Shown here in pieces: positions 35,512 through 48,316 of a stretch of 64,000 nucleotides of DNA; position 1 is the first letter of the stretch, and the number at the start of each line of letters is the position of its first letter. Location: positions 124,001 to 188,000 of the forward strand of contig JAFEBM010000006.1 in NCBI GenBank assembly GCA_018242685.1, read 5' to 3'. This DNA comes from Nitrospira sp. (GTDB lineage: Bacteria > Nitrospirota > Nitrospiria > Nitrospirales > Nitrospiraceae). The translations under genes and the position numbers were made by a program. The notes under the pieces were generated by a model, which saw nothing but the letters and a program-made list of their open reading frames with translations, searched no databases and had not been told where the DNA came from.

Positions 35512-35838
35512 TTACTCGTTTCGCGGTAACAATCGAGCCAACAGCACCTGAGCCGAGACCTCCTTCACACACAGCCGCTTGCGCCGAGCTTCGGCTCCTG
35601 CCTGAATTTGTACATTTGCACGCGGCACAGCGCACCGATCGGCAATGAAGCGAATCAGTTCGTCGTTGGCCGCACCGTCGATCGGACGAGCTGCCAGGCG
35701 GATCTTTATCGCGTCGCCATGAATGCCGACGCACTCAGTACGTGAAGCCCCAGGTTGGACATGTACGGTCAGGAACGCCCCGCGCTCACTGTCCCGTGCG
35801 ATGGCAGGAAGGGAATCCACGAGAATCGATGGATTCAA
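35512..35838 (-). CDS. DUF167 (YggU-family) protein
   Basis: A 108-residue conserved protein with the YggU pattern [46 protein letters not shown]. Function of the family is unproven. Its start overlaps the stop of the CbbQ-like gene by 4 bases, so the two are translated together. Confidence 0.9.
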
Positions 35839-36653
35839 AAGATCGCTTTGACGAATTCGAGTATCGCGCGTTGCATGTCCGAATCATCCGTGATCGGACG
35901 AGCGACGGCCACATCACAGGCCCGCTCGGGCGGCACGCCTCGCTTCATCAGAGTACCGGCGTAGATCAGGAGTCTGGTGCTGACTCCTTCCTCCAATCCG
36001 TGGTTTCTCAAGTTGCGGACCTTTTGCCCGAGCTTGACGAGACGTCCGGCGATTGCAGGATCCACCCCCGCCTCACGTTGAACCACCATCGTTTCGATGT
36101 CCGGCGCGGGATAGTCGAATTCAATCGCGATGAATCGCTGCTTCGTACTCTGCTTCAGATCTTTGAGGACGCTCTGATAGCCGGGGTTGTAGGAGATCAC
36201 CAGCATGAACTCATCGGCGGCCTCCACGATCTGGCCTTTTTTCTCGATCGGAAGCACTCGCCGGTCGTCGCTGAGGGGATGGATGATGACGGTCGTGTCC
36301 TTTCTGGCTTCCACGACCTCGTCGAGATAGACAATGGCTCCATGCTTCACCCCGGCTGTCAAGGGCCCGTCCATCCATACAGTATCCTGCCCCTTGAGGA
36401 GATAACGGCCCACCAAGTCTGATGCCGTGAGGTCTTCGTGACAGGCGACCGTGATCAACGGTCGGCCGAGCTTGTACGCCATGTATTGGACAAAGCGGGT
36501 TTTCCCGCAGCCGGTCGGCCCCTTCAGCATAACCGGGAGCTTCCGCTCGGCGGCAATGGTGAACAGGCCGATCTCCCCACCGACCTCCGCGTAAAACGGC
36601 TCTTGTCGGATGCGATACTGGGCTACATCGATTTCCCGCGCCTGCTGTGTCAC
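35835..36653 (-). CDS. CbbQ/NirQ/NorQ-type MoxR AAA+ ATPase
   Basis: A 272-residue AAA+ activator. Walker [16 protein letters not shown] near residue 47, Walker [13 protein letters not shown], sensor-type SYNPGY, and a C-terminal CbbQ domain ([26 protein letters not shown]). GTG 36653 is chosen because GGGAG lies 7 bases upstream and the length then fits the family; a TTG at 36698 is possible. CbbQ proteins act with a VWA-domain CbbO/NorD partner to remodel RuBisCO or NO reductase; no such partner or client is in the window. Confidence 0.85.
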
Positions 36654-36858
36654 TGCATCACTCCCGGTCCATAGAACTGCTTCGGCCTGACGAAACAACC
36701 AGCTCCGCAGCCGTCACAATAAACGGAACAAAGACTGAAGATCAAGCAAAGGGGAAGATATCGTCTTTACGTGTGTCCCGCTGTAGGTTGAGCTCTATGC
36801 ACAGGAGACCTGATGCGTGGTAGCATGCTGATTGTGTACGTTTCCATGTGGCATTGCG

Positions 36859-38256
36859 ATGTTCAGACCCATCCCAGAAACGACGCTCTTCAGAAAGGTT
36901 TCCTATCGGTTGGTCGCTTCCGTGCTCCTGGTCTTCGCTTTGGTCGTCTCCGTCATTTTGCTTTTCAGCCTGGAACAGAAAAAACTCCTCCTTCGTGGTT
37001 TCACCGAAGGCGAGAATATCCCCACGGAATTGGTCCATGCCCTCCGGCAGTCGCGCAATGATCTGATCGTCGAGACACTTCTTATCTTCTTCGTAAGTTC
37101 GATCGGTATTGCCGCAGTCATCACGTTTCTTCACTACGACGCTGCCCGAAAAACCCTAGAAGAAGTGAAGGGGCTGGCGCGGAATATTTTACACAGTATT
37201 CCAACGGGAGTGCTGACGATCAACCAGAGAGGCATCATCAGCGCGATGAATCCCACAGCTGAAGCGGTGTTGAATCGCGCCTCATCGGAGTTACTGGGGA
37301 TAAGCTATGACGTCGTGTTCCCCGAAGAAGACCCGATCCGCCGGATACTCGACGAGGCGTTGAAAGAACACCGCCATGTGAATCAGAAGGACTTCCTCTA
37401 CGAATGCGGAGACCTAAGCCCGAGAACAATTCGCGTGAGTACAGCAGAGCTCACAGGGGACGATAAGAAACCGGCGGGGGTGATCCTGCAGGCGCAGGAC
37501 GTCTCAGAATGGTTAGAACTCGAACGACGAGTCCGTATCGCAGAAAAGTTAGCGGCGTTGCACACCCTATCTGCGGGGGTCGCGCACGAGCTGCGAAACC
37601 CCTTGAGCGCCATGGATCTGAACCTCCATCTTCTGGAAGAAGAACTTAAGGAAAGCGGAACAGTGGCAGAAACAGGGGCACGGTACTTGGGTGTCGTGAA
37701 CGCCGAATGCCGAAGGCTTTCGGGGATTCTCGATAATTTCATGAAATTTGCCCGCCCGGGATCTGTTGGTTTGCACGAAGTAGATGTAGAGACACTGATC
37801 GACCACATCATGACGTTGATGCGTTTCGAGGCGGAGGAACGCGGGATTCGACTCGAACGGGTGATGGATGAGCAATTACTGCCTGTTCTGGGCGATGCAA
37901 CCCAGATCAGTCAAGTATTGATCAACATCATCGTCAATGCGTTTCATGCCATGCCGAACGGCGGACACTGTCAGATTTCAGCGGTGCAACGAGAGGCTGA
38001 AGGGAAAGACTGGGTAGAGATTACCGTGAAGGATAGCGGCGTCGGGATCGCGAAGGAGCAACTCAACCATCTGTTTGAACCCTTCTATACGACTAAGTCG
38101 AGCGGCACGGGTCTTGGTCTTGCCATAGCATACCGGATTATGCAGGATCATCGCGGTACAATTCAGGTTGTAAGTGCGCCTGGAGCTGGGACGACAGTAG
38201 TGACACAATTCCCGATAGCGATCAGTCAACCACACAAAATCGGTGTGGGATCATGA
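36859..38256 (+). CDS. Membrane sensor histidine kinase with PAS domain (NtrB-like output)
   Basis: A 465-residue kinase. Two transmembrane helices (residues about 17-38 and 72-96) flank a short periplasmic loop; a PAS domain follows (about 108-215, NILHSIPTGVLTINQRGIISAMNPTAEAVLN), then HisKA with the phosphorylated His in GVAHELRNPLSAMDL and an HATPase with GSGTGLGLAIAYRIM-type G boxes. ATG 36859 is preferred over a TTG at 36832. Overlaps the NtrC-type regulator gene by 4 bases, so they form a two-component pair, probably for the sigma-54 promoter at 39.8 kb. Confidence 0.92.
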   Translation: MFRPIPETTLFRKVSYRLVASVLLVFALVVSVILLFSLEQKKLLLRGFTEGENIPTELVHALRQSRNDLIVETLLIFFVSSIGIAAVITFLHYDAARKTLEEVKGLARNILHSIPTGVLTINQRGIISAMNPTAEAVLNRASSELLGISYDVVFPEEDPIRRILDEALKEHRHVNQKDFLYECGDLSPRTIRVSTAELTGDDKKPAGVILQAQDVSEWLELERRVRIAEKLAALHTLSAGVAHELRNPLSAMDLNLHLLEEELKESGTVAETGARYLGVVNAECRRLSGILDNFMKFARPGSVGLHEVDVETLIDHIMTLMRFEAEERGIRLERVMDEQLLPVLGDATQISQVLINIIVNAFHAMPNGGHCQISAVQREAEGKDWVEITVKDSGVGIAKEQLNHLFEPFYTTKSSGTGLGLAIAYRIMQDHRGTIQVVSAPGAGTTVVTQFPIAISQPHKIGVGS

Positions 38257-39611
38257 CGCAGGCCTTTCACGTTCTCATCGTTGATGATGAAGTGAATATC
38301 CGCAATGCTCTGGTGACCATGTTGGAGAAAAAAGGCTACCGGGTTTTCGGAACAGGCACGGGAGCGGAAGCGCTGCGGCATCTTGAGGAAACTCCGGTGG
38401 ATTTGGTAATCACTGACCTCCGGATGCCAGAGATGGGCGGCGTAGAATTTCTGCGTCGGCTGAAGAACAAATGGTCGAATACAGAAGTCGTCGTCATGAC
38501 CGCGTTCGGTTCGATCGATACGGCTGTTGAAGCGATGCGTCTGGGCGCCTACGACTATCTAACGAAACCGATCGATCGTGAGCGGTTTGGAGTCGTCGTG
38601 GAGAAAGCACTCGAGCGCCGTACGCTGACTTCCGAAAACAAGCAACTCCGCGACCGTCTTGAAACGAGAACATGTTTCGATCAAATGGTCGGCGAAAGCG
38701 AAGCCATGCAGGGAGTCTACAGCTTGGTGGAAATGGTGGCGGACAGCGATGTGACGGTCTTGCTCACGGGGGAAAGTGGAACCGGGAAGGAACTCGTCGC
38801 GCGAGCGATCCACCATAAAAGCCCGAGGGCCGATGGACCGTTCATTACCATGAATTGCGGCGCATTGCCCGAGAATCTCTTTGAGAGCGAGTTATTCGGG
38901 TATGAGAAAGGCGCGTTTACCGGTGCCATGTCGACCAAGGCTGGGCGGTTTGAGCTGGCGGACGGTGGTACGCTGTTGCTGGATGAAGTGGGGGAACTCT
39001 CGCTCAAGTCGCAAGTCGATTTTCTACGTGTTCTTGAGACGAAGGAGTTCAGGCGCCTGGGTGGTACGAAATTGATCAAAGTCGATACGAGGATCATAGC
39101 CGCTACCAATCGGAAACTGGATGAAGCGGTCAACCAGGGGGATTTTCGGGAAGATCTCTACTACAGACTGAATGTCGTCCCTATCCGCCTTCCACCACTT
39201 CGCGAGCGGGCAGACGATGTTCCGCTGCTTGTGGATCGATACCTGTCCGCATCTTCCGCACGGCATCACCGCGGACCCAAAGAAGTCTCGCGAGACGCCA
39301 TGCAGTTGTTACGGCTTTATGGGTGGCCTGGAAACGTTCGGCAACTACGAAATCTCATGGAACGGCTTGTCGTCACGGTGAGGGAAACAACGATTCAACC
39401 CGCGCATCTCCCCGAGGAAATTCAGGTTAGCAAAGAGGATACACGGACTATGCTGATCACATTGGGAACATCTCTGGAGCAGATTGAACGACAAGTCATT
39501 GAACGAACTTTGAAGGAAGTCACCAACCATCGAGAAAATGCCGCAAGGCTGTTGGGCATTAGTCTTAGGACTCTCCAATACAAGATCAAGGAATACGAAA
39601 TTCTCGACTAA
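38253..39611 (+). CDS. NtrC-family sigma-54-dependent response regulator
   Basis: A 452-residue activator: receiver domain with phosphoacceptor Asp55 (LVITDLRMPEMGG), AAA+ domain with Walker A GESGTGKELVARAIH, the sigma-54-contacting GAFTGA loop (GYEKGAFTGAMSTKAGRFE) and Walker B GGTLLLDEVGEL, then a Fis-type helix-turn-helix (RENAARLLGISLRTLQYKIKEY). It will activate sigma-54 promoters when phosphorylated; the nearest is 220 bp downstream of its own stop. Confidence 0.95.
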   Translation: MTQAFHVLIVDDEVNIRNALVTMLEKKGYRVFGTGTGAEALRHLEETPVDLVITDLRMPEMGGVEFLRRLKNKWSNTEVVVMTAFGSIDTAVEAMRLGAYDYLTKPIDRERFGVVVEKALERRTLTSENKQLRDRLETRTCFDQMVGESEAMQGVYSLVEMVADSDVTVLLTGESGTGKELVARAIHHKSPRADGPFITMNCGALPENLFESELFGYEKGAFTGAMSTKAGRFELADGGTLLLDEVGELSLKSQVDFLRVLETKEFRRLGGTKLIKVDTRIIAATNRKLDEAVNQGDFREDLYYRLNVVPIRLPPLRERADDVPLLVDRYLSASSARHHRGPKEVSRDAMQLLRLYGWPGNVRQLRNLMERLVVTVRETTIQPAHLPEEIQVSKEDTRTMLITLGTSLEQIERQVIERTLKEVTNHRENAARLLGISLRTLQYKIKEYEILD

Positions 39612-39830: not shown

Positions 39831-39846
39831 TGGCACTCTCCCTGCA
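39831..39846 (+). promoter_or_regulatory. Sigma-54 (-24/-12) promoter
   Basis: TGGCACTCTCCCTGCA: GG and GC doublets separated by exactly 10 bases, matching TGGCAC-N5-TTGCA with one change. It lies in a 313-bp gap just after the NtrC-type regulator and 79 bp before the first small gene, all in the same direction. It is expected to drive the small genes and, by read-through, the Ehr-type operon. Confidence 0.75.
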
Positions 39847-39924
39847 CTGGTTTCACGATAACTCGTTGTGCGCAACCGCCTATCGAGCAACTTGAAGCTG
39901 CCTAAAAAGCAAAGAGATAGAGAC

Positions 39925-40215
39925 ATGACCATTCAGAATGGAGACACGCCGGACCGCAGCCTGTATGCAAGCCGTCAATCGACGCAAGATTGGTTCACAC
40001 AGCTCCAACAGCTGTCGGATGCGCTTGTTCTCTGCCCCACAGATATTGCAACGCGATGTGAACTGGCCGCGTTACTCGAACGGCTCGATCAGCACGAAGA
40101 GGCGTTGATGAATTGGAACAGGGTTCTGACTTCTGATCCCAACAATCTAATGGCACGGGAAGGATTGGCTCGCTGTCGGCAGCGGATGGGCCGTTCCCTC
40201 CAATCCCCCATCTAA
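39925..40215 (+). CDS. Small TPR-like protein, first gene behind the sigma-54 promoter
   Basis: A 96-residue protein with one clear TPR-like helix pair (ATRCELAALLERLDQHEEALMNWNRVLTSDPNNLMAREGLARC) after a 45-residue leader. No signal peptide or membrane segment. ATG 39925 is used; the frame is open to a GTG at 39868. Predicted protein-protein adaptor; its partner is unknown. Confidence 0.65.
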   Translation: MTIQNGDTPDRSLYASRQSTQDWFTQLQQLSDALVLCPTDIATRCELAALLERLDQHEEALMNWNRVLTSDPNNLMAREGLARCRQRMGRSLQSPI

Positions 40216-40989: not shown

Positions 40990-43017
40990 ATGCTGAACCT
41001 GTTGTGGATTCTTCTCGGCAGCTATGTCGTCGGTATACTTCTTCCACTCTGTCTCTCTCGACGACCTGAAGTTCAAAGCCTCGCTGCCGGCACCCCTGCC
41101 GTCGTGGCGACCAGCGCGGGCATCGTTCTTGGGCTCCTTGGCATCACGTCTTCGGAACCTGTCACGGCCTCACTTGTCTCCACAATCCCTCTGCTCACCT
41201 TTGCAATCCGGCTTGATCCACTGGCGGCATTCTTTATTTTGACCATTTCCCTCACCGGTCTCGCCGTTTCTATCTACGCCATTGGATATATGCGGCATTT
41301 TGATGGACGCGCACCGGTCTCTGTGCTTGGAGCGCTCTTCAATGGGTTTCTTTGTTCCATGACCCTGGTGGTACTGGCGGACAACGGCATCTTTTTCCTC
41401 ATCGTCTGGGAACTGATGTCGCTGGTGTCCTATTTTCTGGTTGTGACAGAGCACGAGAAAGCCGAGGTACGCTATGCAGGATTGTTCTACTTGATCATGA
41501 CGCATGTCGGGACCGCCTTCATCATCCTGACCTTTCTGATTTTGTTTTACGACAGTGGGGCATTCTCATTTGAGGCCTTCCGGCATCCGAAGCAGCCCTT
41601 GCCGGAGGGCATGAGAACATTCGCATTTCTGATGGCTCTGATCGGCTTCGGCGCCAAAGCGGGTATCGTGCCGCTTCATGTCTGGCTGCCCTATGCTCAC
41701 CCGGCGGCGCCGTCACATATCTCAGCCCTGATGTCCGGCGTCATGATCAAGACCGCGATCTATGCCCTGATCCGGGTGTATTTCGATTTTCTCGATGGGC
41801 AGTTCCCCTGGTGGTGGGGGTTCGTCGTGCTGCTCCTCGGGGCAACATCTGCGTTACTGGGCGTGATGTATGCGTTGATGGAGCATGATCTCAAGAGGCT
41901 CCTTGCGTTTCACAGCGTAGAGAACATCGGGATCATCTTGTTGGGCATCGGGGCCGGCATGATCTTTCAGTCCTATTGGCTCAAGGAACTTGCCGCACTC
42001 GGACTGCTGGCAGGGCTGTACCACACGATCAATCACGCGATGTTCAAGGCGCTGCTGTTCTTGGGTGCCGGCTCGCTGCTCTATGCGACTCATGCGCATA
42101 ACATCGACGAGTACGGTGGCTTGCTCCGGCGCATGCCCTGGACGGGAGTCTTTTTTTTGATCGGAGCCGTCTCGATTTCCGCTCTGCCTCCCACGAATGG
42201 GTTTGTGAGTGAGTGGCTGGTTTTCCAAAGCCTCTTCCTCAGTTATCAGCTTCCGACGGTGTTTCTCAAACTGATGCTGCCGATCGCCGCCGCGATCCTG
42301 GCCCTGACCGGCGTACTGGCTCTGGCTTGCTTCGCAAAAGCTTTTGGGATTGCGTTTCTCGCATTGCCGCGAAGTACACTCGCACGCCACGCTGAAGAAG
42401 TGCCGGCTTCAATGCGTGTCGGAATGGGTCTCTTAGCCGCCTTCTGTGTGGTGCTGGGAGTCGCGCCAATGGTGATGCTGCCGCTGTTGGACCGAGTCGT
42501 CACCCCTCTGGCGGGAATATCGATTGGAGGGAAGGTGCTGGCGATGGATGGGTGGGCGCTGGCGCCGGTGAATGTCGAATTCTCAAGCTTGTCCACGCCG
42601 GCGCTCTCGCTGCTGCTCATGGCGCTGGCGCTGCTGGGATGGGGACTGGCCGTCACGTTCGGCGGCCGTCTAAGAAAACGCCGTTATAAGACCTGGGGTT
42701 GCGGGATCAACCTCACTCCCCGGATGGAATACACCGCAACCGGTTTTGTCCAGCCGATCAAACGCGTCTTCAGTACCGTTTACCAGCCGACGGTCAAACT
42801 CGAGACGGAGTTTCTTCATGAGTCGCGATACTTTGCCAAACGACGGCACTTTGAATTTCACATTGAACCGATTTTTGAGAAATATCTCTACGATCCTCTG
42901 GTGGCCTTCTTCACGACGCTGGCTGACCGGCTGAGAGTGATCCAGGCAGGAAGCCTGCATCTCTACCTGACCTATATCTTCGCCACCCTCATCCTCTTGT
43001 TGTTGCTCGCGGTGTAA
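40990..43017 (+). CDS. HyfB/NuoL-like proton-translocating membrane subunit
   Basis: A 675-residue Mrp/NuoL/HyfB-type antiporter-like subunit with about 15 helices. The core motif GFGAKAGIVPLHVWLPYAHPAAPSHISALMSGVMIKTAIYALIR contains the central proton-path Lys, and MEHDLKRLLAFHSVENIGIILLGIGAG follows. The last 110 residues (CGINLTPRMEYTATGFVQPIKRVF ... one final helix) are the HyfB-specific C-terminal extension. First of six genes packed end to end; the next starts at the base after its stop. Confidence 0.92.
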   Translation: MLNLLWILLGSYVVGILLPLCLSRRPEVQSLAAGTPAVVATSAGIVLGLLGITSSEPVTASLVSTIPLLTFAIRLDPLAAFFILTISLTGLAVSIYAIGYMRHFDGRAPVSVLGALFNGFLCSMTLVVLADNGIFFLIVWELMSLVSYFLVVTEHEKAEVRYAGLFYLIMTHVGTAFIILTFLILFYDSGAFSFEAFRHPKQPLPEGMRTFAFLMALIGFGAKAGIVPLHVWLPYAHPAAPSHISALMSGVMIKTAIYALIRVYFDFLDGQFPWWWGFVVLLLGATSALLGVMYALMEHDLKRLLAFHSVENIGIILLGIGAGMIFQSYWLKELAALGLLAGLYHTINHAMFKALLFLGAGSLLYATHAHNIDEYGGLLRRMPWTGVFFLIGAVSISALPPTNGFVSEWLVFQSLFLSYQLPTVFLKLMLPIAAAILALTGVLALACFAKAFGIAFLALPRSTLARHAEEVPASMRVGMGLLAAFCVVLGVAPMVMLPLLDRVVTPLAGISIGGKVLAMDGWALAPVNVEFSSLSTPALSLLLMALALLGWGLAVTFGGRLRKRRYKTWGCGINLTPRMEYTATGFVQPIKRVFSTVYQPTVKLETEFLHESRYFAKRRHFEFHIEPIFEKYLYDPLVAFFTTLADRLRVIQAGSLHLYLTYIFATLILLLLLAV

Positions 43018-43971
43018 TTGATGCTACAAGCGATCATTCTCGTTATTGCTCAAGTGACGGTCTTACTGGCCGTCTCGCCGTTTCTTGCCGGTCTGATCCG
43101 GAAGGTCAAAGCACGTCTGCAATTGCGACGCGGCGCGAGTGTCTTCCAGCCTTACGCTGACCTGGCTAAGCTCTTCCGGAAGCAGCCGGTCATTTCGACT
43201 ACCGCCTCTTGGGTCTTTACAGCGACACCCTACATTGTGTTCGCCTCCACAATTTCTGCGGGTTTATTGGTTCCTACGTTCATCTCGCAGACGCCCATGA
43301 ACTTTGCGGGAAACATCATTGCGCTGGTGTATCTCTTGGCATTGGGAACGTTTTTCCTCATTCTTGCGGGACTCGATGCCGGATCAGCGTTCGGCGGGAT
43401 GGGAAGCAGCCGCGAGGCAATCGTTGCATCCCTGACCGAGCCGGCTATGATTCTCTCTATCTTTGCGATTGCTCTGACCAATGGTTCGACGAACTTGAGC
43501 ACCATCGTCCATAAGACCGCGCTGCTAGAAGGTAGTCTCACGGACCCCTCACCCCATCTGATGGCGTTCGCAGCCCTCTTTATCGTCACGCTCGCAGAGA
43601 CAGGACGGGTGCCGGTCGATAATCCAGCGACACATCTCGAACTCACGATGATTCATGAAGCCATGGTCCTAGAATACTCGGGGCGCTATCTCGCCTTGCT
43701 CGAATGGGCGGCCGGCCTGAAGTTGGCCGTATTCCTCTCTTTGATTGCCAACGTCTTCGCACCTTGGGGAATTGCGACCACGCCGGCGCCTGCCGCAATG
43801 ATGATCGGAGTCCTGGTCTATCTGGCGAAAGTTGCAGCACTCGCGGTGGTGATCGGGATTATCGAATGCATGTTCGCAAAATTGCGGTTGTTTCGGGTCA
43901 CGGATCTTTTGGGCGTTGCGTTTATCCTCGGGCTGCTCGGACTGCTGTTCTTTTATATTCTTCGGAGCTGA
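43018..43971 (+). CDS. HyfC/HycD/NuoH-like membrane subunit
   Basis: A 317-residue protein with about eight helices. Conserved cytoplasmic loops of the NuoH family, which join the membrane arm to the redox module, are present: LRRGASVFQPYADLAKLFRKQ, GGMGSSREAIVASLTEPAMIL and AETGRVPVDNPATHLELTMIHEAMVLEYSGRYLALLEW. It starts directly after the previous stop codon. Confidence 0.93.
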   Translation: MMLQAIILVIAQVTVLLAVSPFLAGLIRKVKARLQLRRGASVFQPYADLAKLFRKQPVISTTASWVFTATPYIVFASTISAGLLVPTFISQTPMNFAGNIIALVYLLALGTFFLILAGLDAGSAFGGMGSSREAIVASLTEPAMILSIFAIALTNGSTNLSTIVHKTALLEGSLTDPSPHLMAFAALFIVTLAETGRVPVDNPATHLELTMIHEAMVLEYSGRYLALLEWAAGLKLAVFLSLIANVFAPWGIATTPAPAAMMIGVLVYLAKVAALAVVIGIIECMFAKLRLFRVTDLLGVAFILGLLGLLFFYILRS

Positions 43972-43975
43972 GCGG

Positions 43976-44641
43976 ATGCAGGTTCTTTCTTACAGTGGAT
44001 CACAACTCGTCGACTTGTGCTCGGCCTTGCTCTTGTTGACCTGTTTCGCGATTGTGGCGCAACGGCGACTCTCGGCCTGCGTCGATCTGTTTGCGCTGCA
44101 GTCGGCCTTTCTCGTTGTGACGACGGCGCTGGTGGCCTATTTGACCGGGAACCAGCACCTCTATATTGCGGCGGCGCTGACCGGTGTCATCAAGGTGATC
44201 ATCATTCCCCGGGTCCTCAAGAAAGTCATTGATCGCCTCAATGTTAAGCGGGAACTGGTGATGTGCGTCAACGTTCCGGCGGGACTGTTGATCTGCGGCG
44301 GACTGGTCATGCTGGCCTTCTTCATCTCGCAGCCGATCATTCCATTAGGTTTTCTGCTCACGAGAGATTCGCTGGCCATCGCCCTCGCGATCGTACTCAT
44401 CGGATTTTTTACGATGATCGCGAGACAAAAGGCCGTGACGCAACTGGTTGGTTTTCTGGTGCTGGAAAACGGCTTGTTTCTAGGCGCGACTGCCGCCACA
44501 TACGGGATGCCGCTGATCGTCGAATTGGGCGTGTTCTTCGACGTGCTCATCGCAACATTGATCGCGGGGATCTATACAAATCGCCTACAAGACGCGTTCG
44601 ACAGCGTGGACACGAATCAACTCACCGTGCTGAAAGAATAG
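43976..44641 (+). CDS. HyfE-like (NuoK-related) membrane subunit
   Basis: A 221-residue membrane protein of six or seven helices, like HyfE. The part homologous to NuoK is in the second half (AIVLIGFFTMIARQKAVTQLVGFLVLENGLFLGATAATYGMPLIVELGVFFDVLIATLI), with the buried Glu residues used for proton transfer in NuoK. ATG 43976 gives the family N-terminus, 4 bp after the previous gene. Confidence 0.88.
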   Translation: MQVLSYSGSQLVDLCSALLLLTCFAIVAQRRLSACVDLFALQSAFLVVTTALVAYLTGNQHLYIAAALTGVIKVIIIPRVLKKVIDRLNVKRELVMCVNVPAGLLICGGLVMLAFFISQPIIPLGFLLTRDSLAIALAIVLIGFFTMIARQKAVTQLVGFLVLENGLFLGATAATYGMPLIVELGVFFDVLIATLIAGIYTNRLQDAFDSVDTNQLTVLKE

Positions 44642-44655
44642 CGGAGGATCTGTTG

Positions 44656-46191
44656 ATGATCGCAGTCGCGGCGTTGGTAGTGGCGCCACTATTCGCAGGA
44701 GGGTTGAGCTTGGTCGTTCACCGCTCCGCGCTGCTCCATGCGATCAACCTCATGAGTATGGGCACGCTCGTGGCGGCAGAAATCACGATCACCCGGACCG
44801 TGCTGAGGGATGGTCCGTTCACGGCTCTGGACCAGTTGGTGTATCTCGACGCGTTGTCATCCTTCATTCTTTTCATCATCGGAGCGGTTGGGCTGGCCTG
44901 TTCGTTCTACATGTGTTCCTACATGGACGAGCAAGTGGCGCGGGGCGTCATCGCGCCTACACGGCTCAACTTGTTCTTTTTCCTTTTTCACATGTTTTTG
45001 CTTGCCATGGTAGTTGCAACCATTGCGAACAGCGTCGGGATGCAATGGGTCGCCATTGAGGCGACGACGCTCGCCACAACCTTTCTGATCGCCTTTTGGC
45101 GGCGTCGAGAGTCGCTGGAGGCCGGGTGGAAATACCTCATTTTGTGTTCGGTCGGAATATCGCTCGCATTGTTCGGCGTCGTACTTACCTATTACTCGTC
45201 GCTGCATGTGCTGGGCGATGTCAGTCAGGCATTGAATGTGACGCAGCTGCTCCCCGTAGCCGATCGATTAAATCCGCATGTCCTGAAGTTGTCCTTCATC
45301 TTTATCTTGGTGGGCTATGGTACCAAAGTGGGGCTCGTCCCTATGCATAGCTGGTTGCCGGACGCGTATACGGAAGCGCCGGCTCCGGTCGTGGCTATGC
45401 TCGCAGGCGTCCTTGAAGTGGTCGCGGTCTATGCAATTTTGAGGATGAGGACGATTGTCGACCATGCCGTGCCGTCTGACTTCACTGGTGGGCTGTTGGC
45501 GTTGCTGGGCTTTGCCTCATTTATGACCGCAGCATTGTTCATCCTTATCCAGCACAACTATAAACGACTGTTTGCCTATTCCAGTATCGAGCACATGGGA
45601 ATTGCCATGATCGGATTTGGAGTCGGGGGACCGCTGGGAACCTTCGGTGGGCTGTTTCACTTGTTGAATCATGCATTCGCGAAATCGATGGCGTTCTTTG
45701 CCGCAGGGAACATTCATCGTCGTTATCACACGATGGAAATCGGTCACGTGCAAGGGTTGGCGGCTGCGCAACCCTGGACGGCCATGGCATTGATGATCTC
45801 GGGGTTGGCCCTATCGGCGCTTCCTCCGTTTGCGTCCTTTGCCAGTGAAGTGCACGTCGTCACAGCCCTGGCCTCGCAAGGTGTCCCGGGAATGCCGTTC
45901 ACCAGTACGGGAGGCATGGTGAGCTTTGCATTGTCGGACCAATTCGGACGGATAGCACTGACTGCGGTATTTCTCATATCTGCGGTTCTCGCATTTGGTG
46001 GATTGATGTATCGCATGACCGGGATGGTTTGGGGTACGCCGCCGGAAGGAGTTCTCCGGGAAGAAACCTGGACTTTAGGTCATTTGCCGGTCATTCTTCT
46101 TGCCGGAGCGCTGGTGGTATTCGGTTTTTTTCTGCCGCCGCCCATACAGCAACTCTTGGAGCAGACGACGATGCTTCTTGTAATCCAATAG
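44656..46191 (+). CDS. HyfF-like (NuoN/NuoL-related) proton-translocating subunit
   Basis: A 511-residue antiporter-like subunit with about 14 helices. The core motif GYGTKVGLVPMHSWLPDAYTEAPAPVVAMLAGVLEVVAVYAILR and IQHNYKRLFAYSSIEHMGIAMIGFGVG mark the proton channel. ATG 44656 follows GCGGAGGATC; the much longer frame to 44263 overlaps the previous gene and is not used. With HyfB-like it makes two pump-type subunits; the third (HyfD) of E. coli hydrogenase 4 is missing. Confidence 0.92.
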   Translation: MIAVAALVVAPLFAGGLSLVVHRSALLHAINLMSMGTLVAAEITITRTVLRDGPFTALDQLVYLDALSSFILFIIGAVGLACSFYMCSYMDEQVARGVIAPTRLNLFFFLFHMFLLAMVVATIANSVGMQWVAIEATTLATTFLIAFWRRRESLEAGWKYLILCSVGISLALFGVVLTYYSSLHVLGDVSQALNVTQLLPVADRLNPHVLKLSFIFILVGYGTKVGLVPMHSWLPDAYTEAPAPVVAMLAGVLEVVAVYAILRMRTIVDHAVPSDFTGGLLALLGFASFMTAALFILIQHNYKRLFAYSSIEHMGIAMIGFGVGGPLGTFGGLFHLLNHAFAKSMAFFAAGNIHRRYHTMEIGHVQGLAAAQPWTAMALMISGLALSALPPFASFASEVHVVTALASQGVPGMPFTSTGGMVSFALSDQFGRIALTAVFLISAVLAFGGLMYRMTGMVWGTPPEGVLREETWTLGHLPVILLAGALVVFGFFLPPPIQQLLEQTTMLLVIQ

Positions 46192-46203
46192 GAGAGGACG
46201 GTC

Positions 46204-47796
46204 ATGACAGAGGCGAGGCCCTGTGACAACTTGCTCAAAGCCGCGTTCCCGGCCATTGTGCAGGATGACCCGGTCTGTGGAGAATCTTCTCATTTCCAGG
46301 TTCCTAAGGACCTACTTCCGGCGATCACTCGCTACCTGCATACCCAGCCGAACTTGCGCGGCCGACTGACACTCATCTGGGCCTGTGATCATCGCCCTGT
46401 TCGTGATACCTACGGGCTTCATTACCTGTTCACGCTAGAGGTGTCTCACCACTGGGTGGTGTTGTCAATTGAGCTCGCGGGCAACGATCGGCTGTTTCCA
46501 TCCATTACGCCGCACGTTCATGCCGCCAAGTGGTATGAACGAGAGATTCGCGACATGTTCGGGCTCATTCCCGAGGGACACCCGGACCTGCGACGTCTGG
46601 TTCGACACGAGCATTGGCCGAAGGGGACGCACCCGCTCAGGAAAGACTTTCCCTGGGACCGAGTGCTGGGCAGACAACAGGGCGAGCATCGCTTTCGGCG
46701 TATCGAGGGAGAAGGAGTGTTTGAGGTGCCGGTGGGACCCATCCACGCCGGGATCATCGAGTCCGGGCATTTTCGGTTTTCCGTGGCCGGCGAACCGATC
46801 ATGCAGCTCGAGCTGCGCCATTTTTGGAAACACCGCGGCGTAGAAAAGCTTTTCGAGGAGCAGACGCTGATCGGAGCGGTGCCGCTGGCCGAACGCGTGT
46901 CCGGGGACACAACGGTAGGGCACAGTCTCGCCTATTGCCAGGCCGTTGAACCGCTTCTGGATCTCCAAGTGCCCCGGCGCGCCAGGTACCTCCGTTCTCT
47001 CTTTTTGGAGCTGGAACGACTGTACAATCATCTCGGCGACATCGGCGCCATGTGCAATGACACAGCGTATGCGCTCGCCCATGCGCATTGTGGTCGGATG
47101 AAAGAGCGGATCATGCAGCTCAATGATCGGCTCACAGGTTCACGGTTCCTGCGGGATGTCCTCCGGGTCGGAGGGGTGACTCGAGACATAGAGAATCGTC
47201 AACTCGCCGACCTTGTGGATGAACTGAACCGCATCCAACCGGACTTTTCCGAAGTGGGGGCCATCATTTTTGCGAACGCTTCCCTTACCGATCGCCTGGA
47301 AACGACGGGAATCCTCAATGGGCAAACGGCGTGGGATCACGCCGTGATGGGCGTCGTGGGGCGGGCATCGGGCATGGATTGCGATCTGAGGCGTGATCGC
47401 CCATTCGCTGCCTATGACGAGCTACCCGTGAACGTAGCTCTGTATCGCTACGGTGACGTGCGGGCCAGGTTGCGCGTTCGTGGCGATGAGATCCATGAAT
47501 CCATTCGCCTCATCCGTGAAATTTGCAGCAAGATTCCGGATGGTCCGGTCGCAAATGAACTAAGTTGCTCACCGAATCCAGGCGACTGGACGCTGTCAGC
47601 GGTCGAAGGTTGGCGAGGGGAAATCCTTTATATGGTGATGGCGGGAGAAGGTGGCCGGATTCATCGTTGCAAAGTTCGCGACCCATCGTTCGTGAATTGG
47701 CCCGCGATTCAATGGGCTGTGCCGGGGAATATCATCCCGGACTTTCCTCTCATCAACAAAAGCTTCAACCTCTCATACGCTGGAAACGATCTGTAG
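46204..47796 (+). CDS. HyfG/NuoCD-like large subunit lacking all NiFe-site cysteines
   Basis: A 530-residue fusion of a NuoC-like domain (residues 1-165, with [20 protein letters not shown]) and a NuoD/hydrogenase large subunit domain. The N-terminal nickel motif RVCGxC is RVSGDT here (Ser233, Thr236) and the C-terminal DPCxxC is DPSFVN (Ser495, Asn498), so none of the four metal ligands remains. No C-terminal His-type maturation signal follows. The rest of the fold is well kept ([28 protein letters not shown]), so it is a selected, non-hydrogenase version. It cannot make H2 by the known NiFe chemistry. Confidence 0.93.
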
Positions 47797-47806
47797 GAGG
47801 CCGAAC

Positions 47807-48316
47807 ATGTTCCGTATCATCAAGAAGAGTTTGAAGATCGGAGTTGTGACGGGTCAGTATCGCAGAGCGGAGAGGTCTGCGCTACCGGTTAGCCCGGAAG
47901 TTAAGGACAAAACTAAACTCTTCAAACGGTCGCTCGCGATCCGTGAAGTAGATACCGGCTCCTGCAACGCCTGTGAGATGGAAATGAATGCGCTCCTCAA
48001 TCCTGTGTACGATGCCGAACGGTTCGGCATTCACATCGCAGCCTCACCGCGCCATGCCGATGCATTGGTGGTGACGGGGCCGGTCACCGTCAACATGGAG
48101 CGAGCGTTGAAAGATGTGCACAAGCAAACACCTGACCCGAAAATCGTCATTGCACTCGGCGACTGCGCGATCACCTGCGGCATGTTCAAAAACAGCTATG
48201 CAGTGACCGGGCCTGTGGAACGGCATATTCCTGTGGATATTCGTATCTCCGGCTGCCCGCCGCGGCCAGCGGAAATTCTCGAGGTCTTATCGGAGTTGCG
48301 CAAGCCAACGGTATGA
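47807..48316 (+). CDS. HyfI/NuoB-like small subunit with one [4Fe-4S] cluster
   Basis: A 169-residue NuoB/HycG-type subunit. Cluster ligands are all present: Cys53 and Cys56 (TGSCNACEMEMNAL), Cys120 (LGDCAITCGMF) and Cys150 (ISGCPPRPAEIL). This is the proximal or N2-type cluster that in hydrogenases faces the NiFe site and in complex I faces quinone. Preceded by GGAGG, 10 bp after the large subunit. No ferredoxin-like (HyfA/HyfH) electron-input gene follows. Confidence 0.92.
   Translation: MFRIIKKSLKIGVVTGQYRRAERSALPVSPEVKDKTKLFKRSLAIREVDTGSCNACEMEMNALLNPVYDAERFGIHIAASPRHADALVVTGPVTVNMERALKDVHKQTPDPKIVIALGDCAITCGMFKNSYAVTGPVERHIPVDIRISGCPPRPAEILEVLSELRKPTV

What the first reader, a model, noticed from the sequence alone, without database searches (positions are those of the whole stretch)
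40990..48316. Ehr-type hydrogenase-4-like complex with every NiFe ligand replaced
Six packed genes encode HyfB-, HyfC-, HyfE-, HyfF-, HyfG- and HyfI-like subunits. The large subunit has RVSGDT at residues 231-236 and DPSFVN at 493-498 in place of RxCGxC and DPCxxC, so all four metal cysteines are gone, while the small subunit keeps Cys53, 56, 120 and 150. Both proton-pump subunits keep their core motifs. HyfD and the ferredoxin-like HyfA/HyfH subunits are missing. Ehr complexes (energy-converting-hydrogenase-related) are known as a class but their reaction and electron donor are unknown; this one has an unusual subunit set and its own sigma-54 control. It may couple an unknown redox reaction, perhaps at a quinone site, to proton movement.
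Basis: partly seen in the sequence, partly recalled or inferred. Interest (0 to 1): 0.78.

Follow-up and report, generated by a model that had tools for sequence, protein, structure and literature searches.

The report
Metal-free hydrogenase-like Ehr complex, Nitrospira
Six genes in a Nitrospira genome encode a relative of hydrogenase and respiratory complex I in which every cysteine that would hold the nickel-iron metal is replaced; it belongs to a family already reported in these bacteria whose reaction is unknown, and it likely uses a rebuilt metal-free pocket to couple electron transfer to proton pumping.

Summary
The six genes are real and intact: hyfB, C, E, F, G, I at 40990-48316. The large subunit lacks all four [NiFe] cysteines. 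None of 82 close relatives has a cysteine in any of the four columns, so a sequencing error is excluded. The protein groups with Ehr/Hyq sequences, next to Hyf/Hyc and outside NuoD. The subunit set is not unusual: 20 of 20 other Nitrospirota loci have B, C, E, F, G, I in this order, one with an extra antiporter-like gene, as do Rhizobium and Burkholderia plasmids and published Azorhizobium Hyq. Sigma-54 control is supported: a -24/-12 element follows the NtrC-type regulator in 20 of 20 loci that have it. Papers already report Ehr in Nitrospira, CxxC missing, function unknown. New here: a conserved replacement pocket (SGD-T/S, NKS), two Ehr-specific HyfC histidines, complex I quinone ligands absent, hydrogenase proton relay kept, HypD not found here or in complete N. 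defluvii. Best guess, unproven: ferredoxin-type donor, quinone-like acceptor, proton pump.

The parts
36832..38256 (+). PAS-type sensor histidine kinase
   Evidence: Pfam PAS, HisKA, HATPase_c; upstream neighbour in related loci
38253..39611 (+). NtrC/AtoC-type sigma-54-dependent response regulator
   Evidence: same-strand upstream in 17 of 25 loci with at least 4 kb before hyfB
39831..39845 (+). sigma-54 (-24/-12) promoter-like element TGGCACTCTCCCTGC
   Evidence: 20 of 20 loci with the regulator carry NGGCAY-N6-TGC within 330 bp behind its stop
39868..40215 (+). small TPR protein gene (start codon uncertain; an in-frame ATG lies at 39925)
   Evidence: Pfam TPR_17; present in 16 of 25 loci with at least 4 kb upstream; sequence
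40990..43017 (+). HyfB-like, NuoL-type antiporter-like subunit
   Evidence: NF005086 749 bits, over cut-off; E141, K223, K353, E408 in 64 of 64 rows, K254 in 62 of 64
43018..43971 (+). HyfC-like, NuoH-type subunit (TTG at 43018 or ATG at 43021)
   Evidence: acidic residues kept, Ehr-specific loop with His206 (61/61) and His213 (59/61) and a 3-residue insert
43976..44641 (+). HyfE-like membrane subunit
   Evidence: NF008556 103 bits, below cut-off 136; start
44656..46191 (+). HyfF-like, antiporter-like subunit (511 aa)
   Evidence: E135, K224, K303, K343, E398 in 68 of 68 rows
46204..47796 (+). HyfG-like large subunit, NuoC-NuoD fusion, all four NiFe cysteines replaced
46894..46911 (+). codons for RVSGDT (residues 231-236), the old L1 metal motif
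47767..47784 (+). codons for NLSYAG (residues 522-527), the true old L2 metal motif
47807..48316 (+). HyfI-like small subunit with four [4Fe-4S]-type cysteines 53, 56, 120, 150
   Evidence: CCCC in 55 of 57 rows, exceptions L060 and L077

Best explanation
The operon encodes a six-subunit Ehr/Hyq-type complex, likely descended from a group 4 [NiFe] hydrogenase, whose large subunit has no metal-binding cysteines but a conserved replacement pocket; it is predicted to take electrons from a soluble low-potential carrier, likely ferredoxin, at the single predicted iron-sulfur cluster of HyfI, to pass them to a small acceptor, likely a quinone bound in a new way, in that pocket, and would use the reaction to drive proton pumping by HyfB and HyfF. 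Shown here: family membership, loss of all four ligands, conserved residues in the pocket columns and the HyfC loop, conserved cluster cysteines, intact charged residues in the pump subunits, purifying selection, the gene composition and the conserved sigma-54 element. Inferred: that the columns form one pocket, cluster assembly, the electron donor, the acceptor, the direction of electron flow and the pumping. The reaction is likely reversible, running forward when the cell is over-reduced or short of oxygen.
For: Tree: 39 rows (36 Ehr/Hyq, 3 fluoride-type) form a branch next to Hyf/Hyc, 100/100; the 20 Nitrospira rows 100/100; NuoD apart. Pocket columns: no Cys in 82 of 82 rows; Ser233 78/82, Thr or Ser236 78/82, Ser524 78/81, Gly527 81/81, Asp235 77/82, Asn518-Lys519-Ser520 81/81, Tyr525 81/81. 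Proton-relay residues named for HycE in PMC9474812 (passages) are kept: Glu193=Glu186, Arg478=Arg471, His284=His276, Glu437=Glu429, Arg395=Arg387; canopy Asp529 became Asn522. HyfI keeps the CxxC-type cluster cysteines in 55 of 57 rows. HyfC keeps its acidic residues and gains a His-bearing loop; by my alignment this is Loop 3, which in MBS joins active site and pump (PMC7684303 passages). Ferredoxin hint: in 5 Nitrospira loci the region before hyfB holds an alpha-like piece of 2-oxoacid:ferredoxin oxidoreductase, in 3 of them with a paralogue of an extra subunit of that enzyme. dN/dS 0.06-0.16.
Against: The complex I quinone ligands His and Tyr are replaced by Ile185 and Gly234 in all 82 rows, so canonical quinone chemistry is unlikely. 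No HyfH/NuoI-like ferredoxin subunit is present, so the donor must dock straight on HyfI; no docking was tested. The ferredoxin hint covers only 5 loci. No redox partner gene is shared by the 20 other Nitrospirota loci. The predicted structure is unsure exactly at the pocket (residues 154-210 and 508-530 under pLDDT 50). The NKS signature is not universal in the wider family: it is missing in the 3 fluoride-type rows and in 2 of 7 other cysteine-less sequences that reach these columns. Some relatives have lost even the cluster cysteines. Azorhizobium work reports hydrogenase phenotypes for a six-subunit relative (PMC2650096, PMC3357923 passages).
Confidence: 0.37

Rival explanations
1. It is a true H2:quinone endo-hydrogenase that works without the usual four cysteines, as claimed for Azorhizobium Hyq.
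For: Deletion of the hyq operon changed growth and H2 recycling, and the authors ascribe microaerobic H2 production to Hyq in Azorhizobium (PMC2650096 abstract and passages, PMC3357923 passages). The Rhizobium leguminosarum relative, a species in that paper's HyqG alignment, is 40% identical to the window protein.
Against: No ligand Cys in 82 of 82 rows, while true hydrogenases of the same phylum keep all four (4 of 12 low-scoring matches). HypD, needed to build the NiFe cofactor (recalled), was not found in this genome (93.75% complete) or in complete N. defluvii, and was found in 20 of 37 Ehr genomes tested, from 37 of the 64 loci. Ehr expression did not rise with H2 in N. moscoviensis (cited in PMC12342949, passage). 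Two of the three Cys said to be universal in HyqG are not in the window protein. PMC3357923 itself calls a NiFe site in HyqG uncertain, if not unlikely.
Confidence: 0.06
2. The complex no longer does redox chemistry: it is a proton-motive-force-driven transporter or conformational device built on the complex I scaffold.
For: Of the 120 best relatives of the Allomeiothermus HyfI, 71 have none of the four cluster cysteines, in repeated patterns such as TDES and DEDS. No redox partner is shared by the other Nitrospirota operons.
Against: In the window's own group the cluster cysteines are kept in 55 of 57 rows, and proton-relay and pocket columns are conserved.
Confidence: 0.17
3. It is the membrane arm of a formate-linked complex: a formate dehydrogenase feeds it, as proposed for FDH-Ehr in other phyla and for Nitrospira nitrite oxidisers.
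For: Proposed in PMC5596200 and PMC6349859 (passages). In 77 Nitrospiraceae genomes common to two searches, 25 of 45 with Ehr and 10 of 32 without have an FDH over cut-off, p = 0.04, not corrected for kinship.
Against: 20 of those 45 Ehr genomes, the window's own included, have no FDH match over the cut-off. No FDH gene was recognised beside the operon in the window. The other Nitrospirota loci were labelled only against a small reference set, so absence there was not fully tested.
Confidence: 0.1
4. A different small polar substrate, neither quinone nor H2, is reduced or oxidised in the pocket, as MBS does with sulfane sulfur.
For: The pocket columns are polar and conserved (Ser, Asp, Thr, Asn, Lys, Ser, Tyr); quinone ligands are absent. 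MBS shows that a relative without a NiFe site can take a new substrate (PMC7684303 passages).
Against: The family spans nitrifiers, rhizobia, actinobacteria and thermophiles, with no obvious shared substrate other than quinones (recalled). MBS-specific features are not met: MbsL keeps two of the four Cys, and its small-subunit motif is shorter (PMC7684303 passages).
Confidence: 0.28

Closest known systems
Ehr of Nitrospira (PMC12342949, PMC10284858, PMC5596200, PMC12542776; passages read)
   Same: hyfBCEFGI-type operon, missing NiFe ligands, function unknown. PMC12342949 says about half of the Nitrospirales genomes have it.
   Different: Nothing different in kind. The replacement pocket, the HyfC loop and the missing quinone ligands were not in the passages I read.
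Azorhizobium / rhizobial Hyq endo-hydrogenase (PMC2650096, PMC3357923; passages read)
   Same: Six subunits BCEFGI, sigma-54 control, no CxxC in the large subunit; R. leguminosarum relative 40% identical.
   Different: NifA-controlled there; HyqG has two extra conserved Cys near the C-terminus (Ile517 and Leu523 here).
E. coli FHL-1/FHL-2 (HycE, HyfG)
   Same: HycE is the closest solved structure by sequence (7z0s_E, 2.7e-79) and by fold (rank 1); proton relay kept.
   Different: No NiFe cysteines, no HyfA, HyfD, HyfH, no formate dehydrogenase in the operon, no C-terminal extension after the old L2 motif.
Respiratory complex I (NuoB, CD, H, L/M)
   Same: Homologous core and pump subunits.
   Different: No NADH module, no NuoI; quinone His and Tyr absent; CxxC cluster instead of adjacent cysteines.
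Pyrococcus MBS sulfane sulfur reductase
   Same: A relative without a NiFe site and with a new reaction.
   Different: MbsL keeps two of four Cys (PMC7684303 passage); here none.

Membership tests
Ehr (energy-converting hydrogenase-related complex) | homologous to group 4 hydrogenase / complex I core, with antiporter-like subunits | tested here: met
Ehr (energy-converting hydrogenase-related complex) | NiFe-binding cysteines missing | tested here: met
   window; 82 of 82 rows
Hyq-type six-subunit complex | gene set B, C, E, F, G, I without A, D, H | tested here: met
   window; same order in 20 of 20 other Nitrospirota loci, of which two are duplicated, one has an extra antiporter-like gene and one a HyfA-like gene upstream
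Hyq-type six-subunit complex | three Cys conserved in HyqG (Cys-258, 491, 497 of A. caulinodans) | tested here: not met
   mapped through R. leguminosarum: one of three kept (Cys284); claim from PMC3357923
Hyq-type six-subunit complex | hydrogenase activity in vivo | not testable with these tools
   needs an assay
[NiFe] hydrogenase group 4 | four Cys ligands in L1 and L2 | tested here: not met
   S233, T236, S524, G527
[NiFe] hydrogenase group 4 | NiFe maturation by Hyp proteins available in the genome | tested here: not met
   HypD not found in this genome, 93.75% complete, nor in complete N. defluvii; only HypD was sought
Complex I (NuoD) | large subunit groups with NuoD | tested here: not met
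Complex I (NuoD) | quinone-ligand His and Tyr | tested here: not met
   Ile185 and Gly234
MBS | two of the four old NiFe Cys retained | tested here: not met
   against PMC7684303 passage
Formate hydrogenlyase | formate dehydrogenase and HyfA/HyfH relay subunits | tested here: not met
   none recognised in or beside the operon; own genome has no FDH over cut-off

The most novel reading that the evidence does not exclude
Ehr is a separate kind of respiratory machine: a proton pump driven by a conserved metal-free catalytic pocket (Ser-Gly-Asp-Thr/Ser plus Asn-Lys-Ser, coupled to the membrane by two Ehr-specific histidines of HyfC) that does neither hydrogen nor canonical complex I quinone chemistry, and it is one stage of a stepwise removal of redox centres from the complex I scaffold that ends in relatives with no proximal cluster at all.
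Probability: 0.33. Interest if true: 0.78.

Novelty: new member of a known kind. Interest (0 to 1): 0.45.

Why it matters
Ehr complexes are widespread in Nitrospirota (at most 148 of 253 good genomes sampled, perhaps 137 once a genus with true hydrogenases is taken off) and occur in rhizobia, Burkholderia and actinobacteria, yet their reaction is unknown. The conserved pocket and loop residues found here give a signature for annotation, now mixed (NADH-quinone oxidoreductase, hydrogenase, formate hydrogenlyase), and residues to mutate. They also bear on how the complex I family swapped a metal site for another substrate.

Tried and rejected
Sequencing error restoring cysteines: rejected, 82 of 82 relatives agree. 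Pseudogene: rejected, dN/dS 0.06-0.16 for HyfB, C, G, I. NuoD of a second complex I: rejected by the tree; the genome has four NuoD loci besides. DPSFVN as the metal motif: rejected by alignment. Formate partner: weak association only. Structure of the pocket: the HyfG model has mean pLDDT 77.9, but residues 154-210 and 508-530 are under 50, so no cavity was measured; HyfI and HyfC would be needed. Fold search only repeated the HycE match. NDH-2 as operon partner: in 11 of 43 loci, 10 downstream and one upstream, not general. A sigma-54 site right before hyfB: none good. A presence/absence study with HyfI and AmoA did not complete.

A check changed one count: the E<=1e-60 matches are not all Ehr. 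Of 12 low-scoring ones re-examined, 4, all from one genus (g60, 11 genomes), carry all four cysteines and a C-terminal extension; 8 do not (one of these is cut before L2). It also showed an extra antiporter-like gene in L114 and the second hyfB of L098 that my ORF caller had hidden.

Rows dropped before counts: one search used every third of the extra Nitrospira rows and only rows with over 250 filled columns (50 rows). One search left out three fluoride-type rows, E. coli and NuoD rows, Halobaculum, true hydrogenases and Nitrospira ORFs outside 440-620 aa; its 22 other-Nitrospirota rows come from higher-scoring matches. Searches used length filters. The HyfF reference was read in a wrong frame, so HyfF was recognised there by place and by its HyfB/HyfD likeness. 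Recalled, from no call: roles of the Lys/Glu residues in antiporter subunits, the need for HypD, the Tyr as quinone ligand.
Full report
What is there. The window lies in a 4.2 Mb genome, 93.75% complete, whose nearest named relatives are Nitrospira (95% identical HyfG). The six ORFs are intact and packed on the + strand. Corrected starts are 43976 for hyfE and 44656 for hyfF. Downstream, on the opposite strand, is a sensor kinase gene; upstream are a kinase, an NtrC/AtoC-type regulator and a TPR gene. The genome also holds four NuoD loci besides HyfG.

The metal site. Aligned with E. coli HycE, the L1 cysteines 241 and 244 fall on Ser233 and Thr236, and the L2 cysteines 531 and 534 on Ser524 and Gly527 of the C-terminal [11 protein letters not shown]. 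In 82 Ehr rows (60 from Nitrospira, Actinobacteria, one Acidobacteria bin, Proteobacteria and Allomeiothermus, plus 22 from 20 other Nitrospirota loci) no row has Cys in any of the four columns. The replacements are regular: Ser233 78/82, Gly234 82/82, Asp235 77/82, Thr or Ser236 78/82, Ser524 78/81, Gly527 81/81, and Asn518-Lys519-Ser520 81/81. This looks like a kept site, not decay; dN/dS is 0.06-0.16 for the four subunits tested. The protein ends right after the old L2 motif, whereas true hydrogenases of the same phylum have CCCC and an extension. Limits: among 12 low-scoring matches examined later, 4 (one genus) are true hydrogenases; of the 7 cysteine-less ones that reach the L2 columns, 5 have NKS and 2 do not, nor do the three fluoride-type rows.

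Neither hydrogenase nor classical quinone site. The residues that PMC9474812 (passages) names for proton transfer in HycE are kept (Glu186, Arg471, His276, Glu429, Arg387), while the canopy Asp529, called strictly conserved there, is Asn522 (75 of 81 filled rows). The complex I quinone ligands, His224 and Tyr273 of E. coli NuoCD, are Ile185 and Gly234 in every row. That the Tyr column is a quinone ligand is recalled; the His agrees with PMC9474812. HyfC carries a loop THLELTMIHEA with a three-residue insert against E. coli HyfC, HycD and NuoH; His206 is in 61 of 61 rows and His213 in 59 of 61. By my alignment this is the TMH5-6 loop, one of three that in MBS link the catalytic site with the pump (PMC7684303 passages). 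HyfI has CxxC plus two Cys in 55 of 57 rows. HypD was not found in this genome or in complete N. defluvii; 20 of 37 Ehr genomes have it.

Tree. With 50 rows and 359 columns, 36 Ehr/Hyq rows and 3 fluoride-type rows form one branch next to Hyf/Hyc (100/100); inside it Nitrospira (100/100), Proteobacteria (100/99) and the actinobacterial set (100/99). The five NuoD rows are apart, with a Halobaculum row nearest to them. Some long branches (Alicyclobacillus, M. branderi, Allomeiothermus) are flagged as unsure.

Composition and spread. In 20 of 20 loci taken from other Nitrospirota the order is B, C, E, F, G, I. Two loci hold the operon twice in tandem, one has an extra antiporter-like gene before F (L114), one a HyfA-like gene upstream (L096), and a HTH plus PTS-EIIA regulator lies beside six. 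F was recognised by place and by likeness to HyfB or HyfD. Rhizobium, Burkholderia pyrrocinia, Paraburkholderia and Allomeiothermus plasmids show the same six genes as annotated. In 295 Nitrospirota genomes, 175 match at E<=1e-60, 148 of 253 among good ones; 11 of these belong to the genus whose four tested members are true hydrogenases. Within the window's genus 20 genomes match and at least 20 do not (the list is cut).

Control. NGGCAY-N6-TGC follows the regulator in 20 of 20 loci, shuffled mean 0.19, maximum 2; kinship of the loci adds to this conservation. It sits before the TPR gene, so control of hyfB itself is inferred. A one-mismatch sigma-54 search of the window is no better than chance, and no good site lies right before hyfB.

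Partners. No redox partner is common to all. In five Nitrospira loci (L019, L027, L033, L039, L054) the region before hyfB holds an alpha-like piece of 2-oxoacid:ferredoxin oxidoreductase (for L054 TIGR03710 5.6e-14, far under cut-off), in three of them (L019, L039, L054) with a small protein whose relatives in this genome lie beside genes I read by eye as gamma, ferredoxin and alpha subunits. This is the only hint toward ferredoxin. FDH is weakly associated and often absent.

Wider family. Of the 120 best relatives of the Allomeiothermus HyfI, 71 lack all four cluster cysteines, 46 keep all; several that I looked at keep Cys in an N-terminal ferredoxin-like part. A further subtype sits beside CrcB, DUF190, enolase, pyrophosphatase or dynamin genes.

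Literature. Passages of PMC12342949, PMC10284858, PMC10432482, PMC5596200, PMC12542776 and PMC6349859 already give Ehr or the hyf-like operon, and most the missing ligands and unknown function; PMC2650096 and PMC3357923 describe Hyq. The listings of searches showed me no purified Ehr complex of this type; only open-licence papers are held, and most listed papers were not opened, so this is no proof of absence.

Verdict. A sound observation with one misplaced motif, in a known but unexplained family. The parts I did not meet in print are the conserved replacement pocket, the HyfC loop, the absent quinone ligands and the conserved sigma-54 element.

Noticed in passing
L078 5036-18887, L079 4608-16791, L080 4573-15731, L140: A divergent Ehr subtype (HyfG 33-36% identical to the window's in the three plasmids) lies in islands with fluoride-type genes: CrcB, DUF190, inorganic pyrophosphatase, enolase, dynamin-like, chloride channel. 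CrcB is in three of the four stretches; L079 has enolase and DUF190; in L080 only the large subunit is annotated. A fluoride link is a guess.
   Followed up: partly
P0121-P0240; L077 10260-11132; L079 10402-11196: HyfI-like small subunits with all four proximal-cluster cysteines replaced, in repeated patterns (TDES in Meiothermus/Thermus, DEDS in named Gaiellaceae): 71 of 120 best relatives of the L077 protein. These complexes may work without the proximal cluster.
   Followed up: partly
L098, L099: The whole hyf-like operon is present twice in tandem in two Nitrospirota loci.
   Followed up: partly
L114 6194-9223: Two antiporter-like genes between hyfE and hyfG, so a seven-gene version of the operon.
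   Followed up: no
L019, L027, L033, L039, L054, before hyfB: Relatives of 2-oxoacid:ferredoxin oxidoreductase subunits in the Ehr region. The 'CODH' next to the hyf operon of Ca. N. nitrosa in PMC5596200 might be this; not checked.
   Followed up: partly
L007, L009, L011, L019, L027, L030, L037, L050, L054, L060: A protein of about 310 aa with a C-x2-H-x3-M-like motif, exported and cupredoxin-like to my eye, in 10 loci near the operon; Pfam gives only CarboxypepD_reg and fn3_3.
   Followed up: no
L012, L015, L025-L028, L048, L052, L059, L060, L070: A type II NADH dehydrogenase (NDH-2) gene near the operon in 11 of 43 loci, 10 of them downstream on the same strand.
   Followed up: partly
window 35835-36698 -: CbbQ/NirQ/NorQ-type AAA ATPase divergently placed before the kinase gene; its usual vWA partner was not looked for beyond the Pfam scan of neighbours.
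   Followed up: no
L096, L100, L105, L108, L109, L110: HTH plus PTS-EIIA regulator gene beside the Ehr operon in six of 20 other Nitrospirota loci.
   Followed up: no
L148, L149, L151, L152: True group 4 [NiFe] hydrogenases with all four cysteines in one Nitrospirota genus, a natural contrast to the Ehr sequences.
   Followed up: partly
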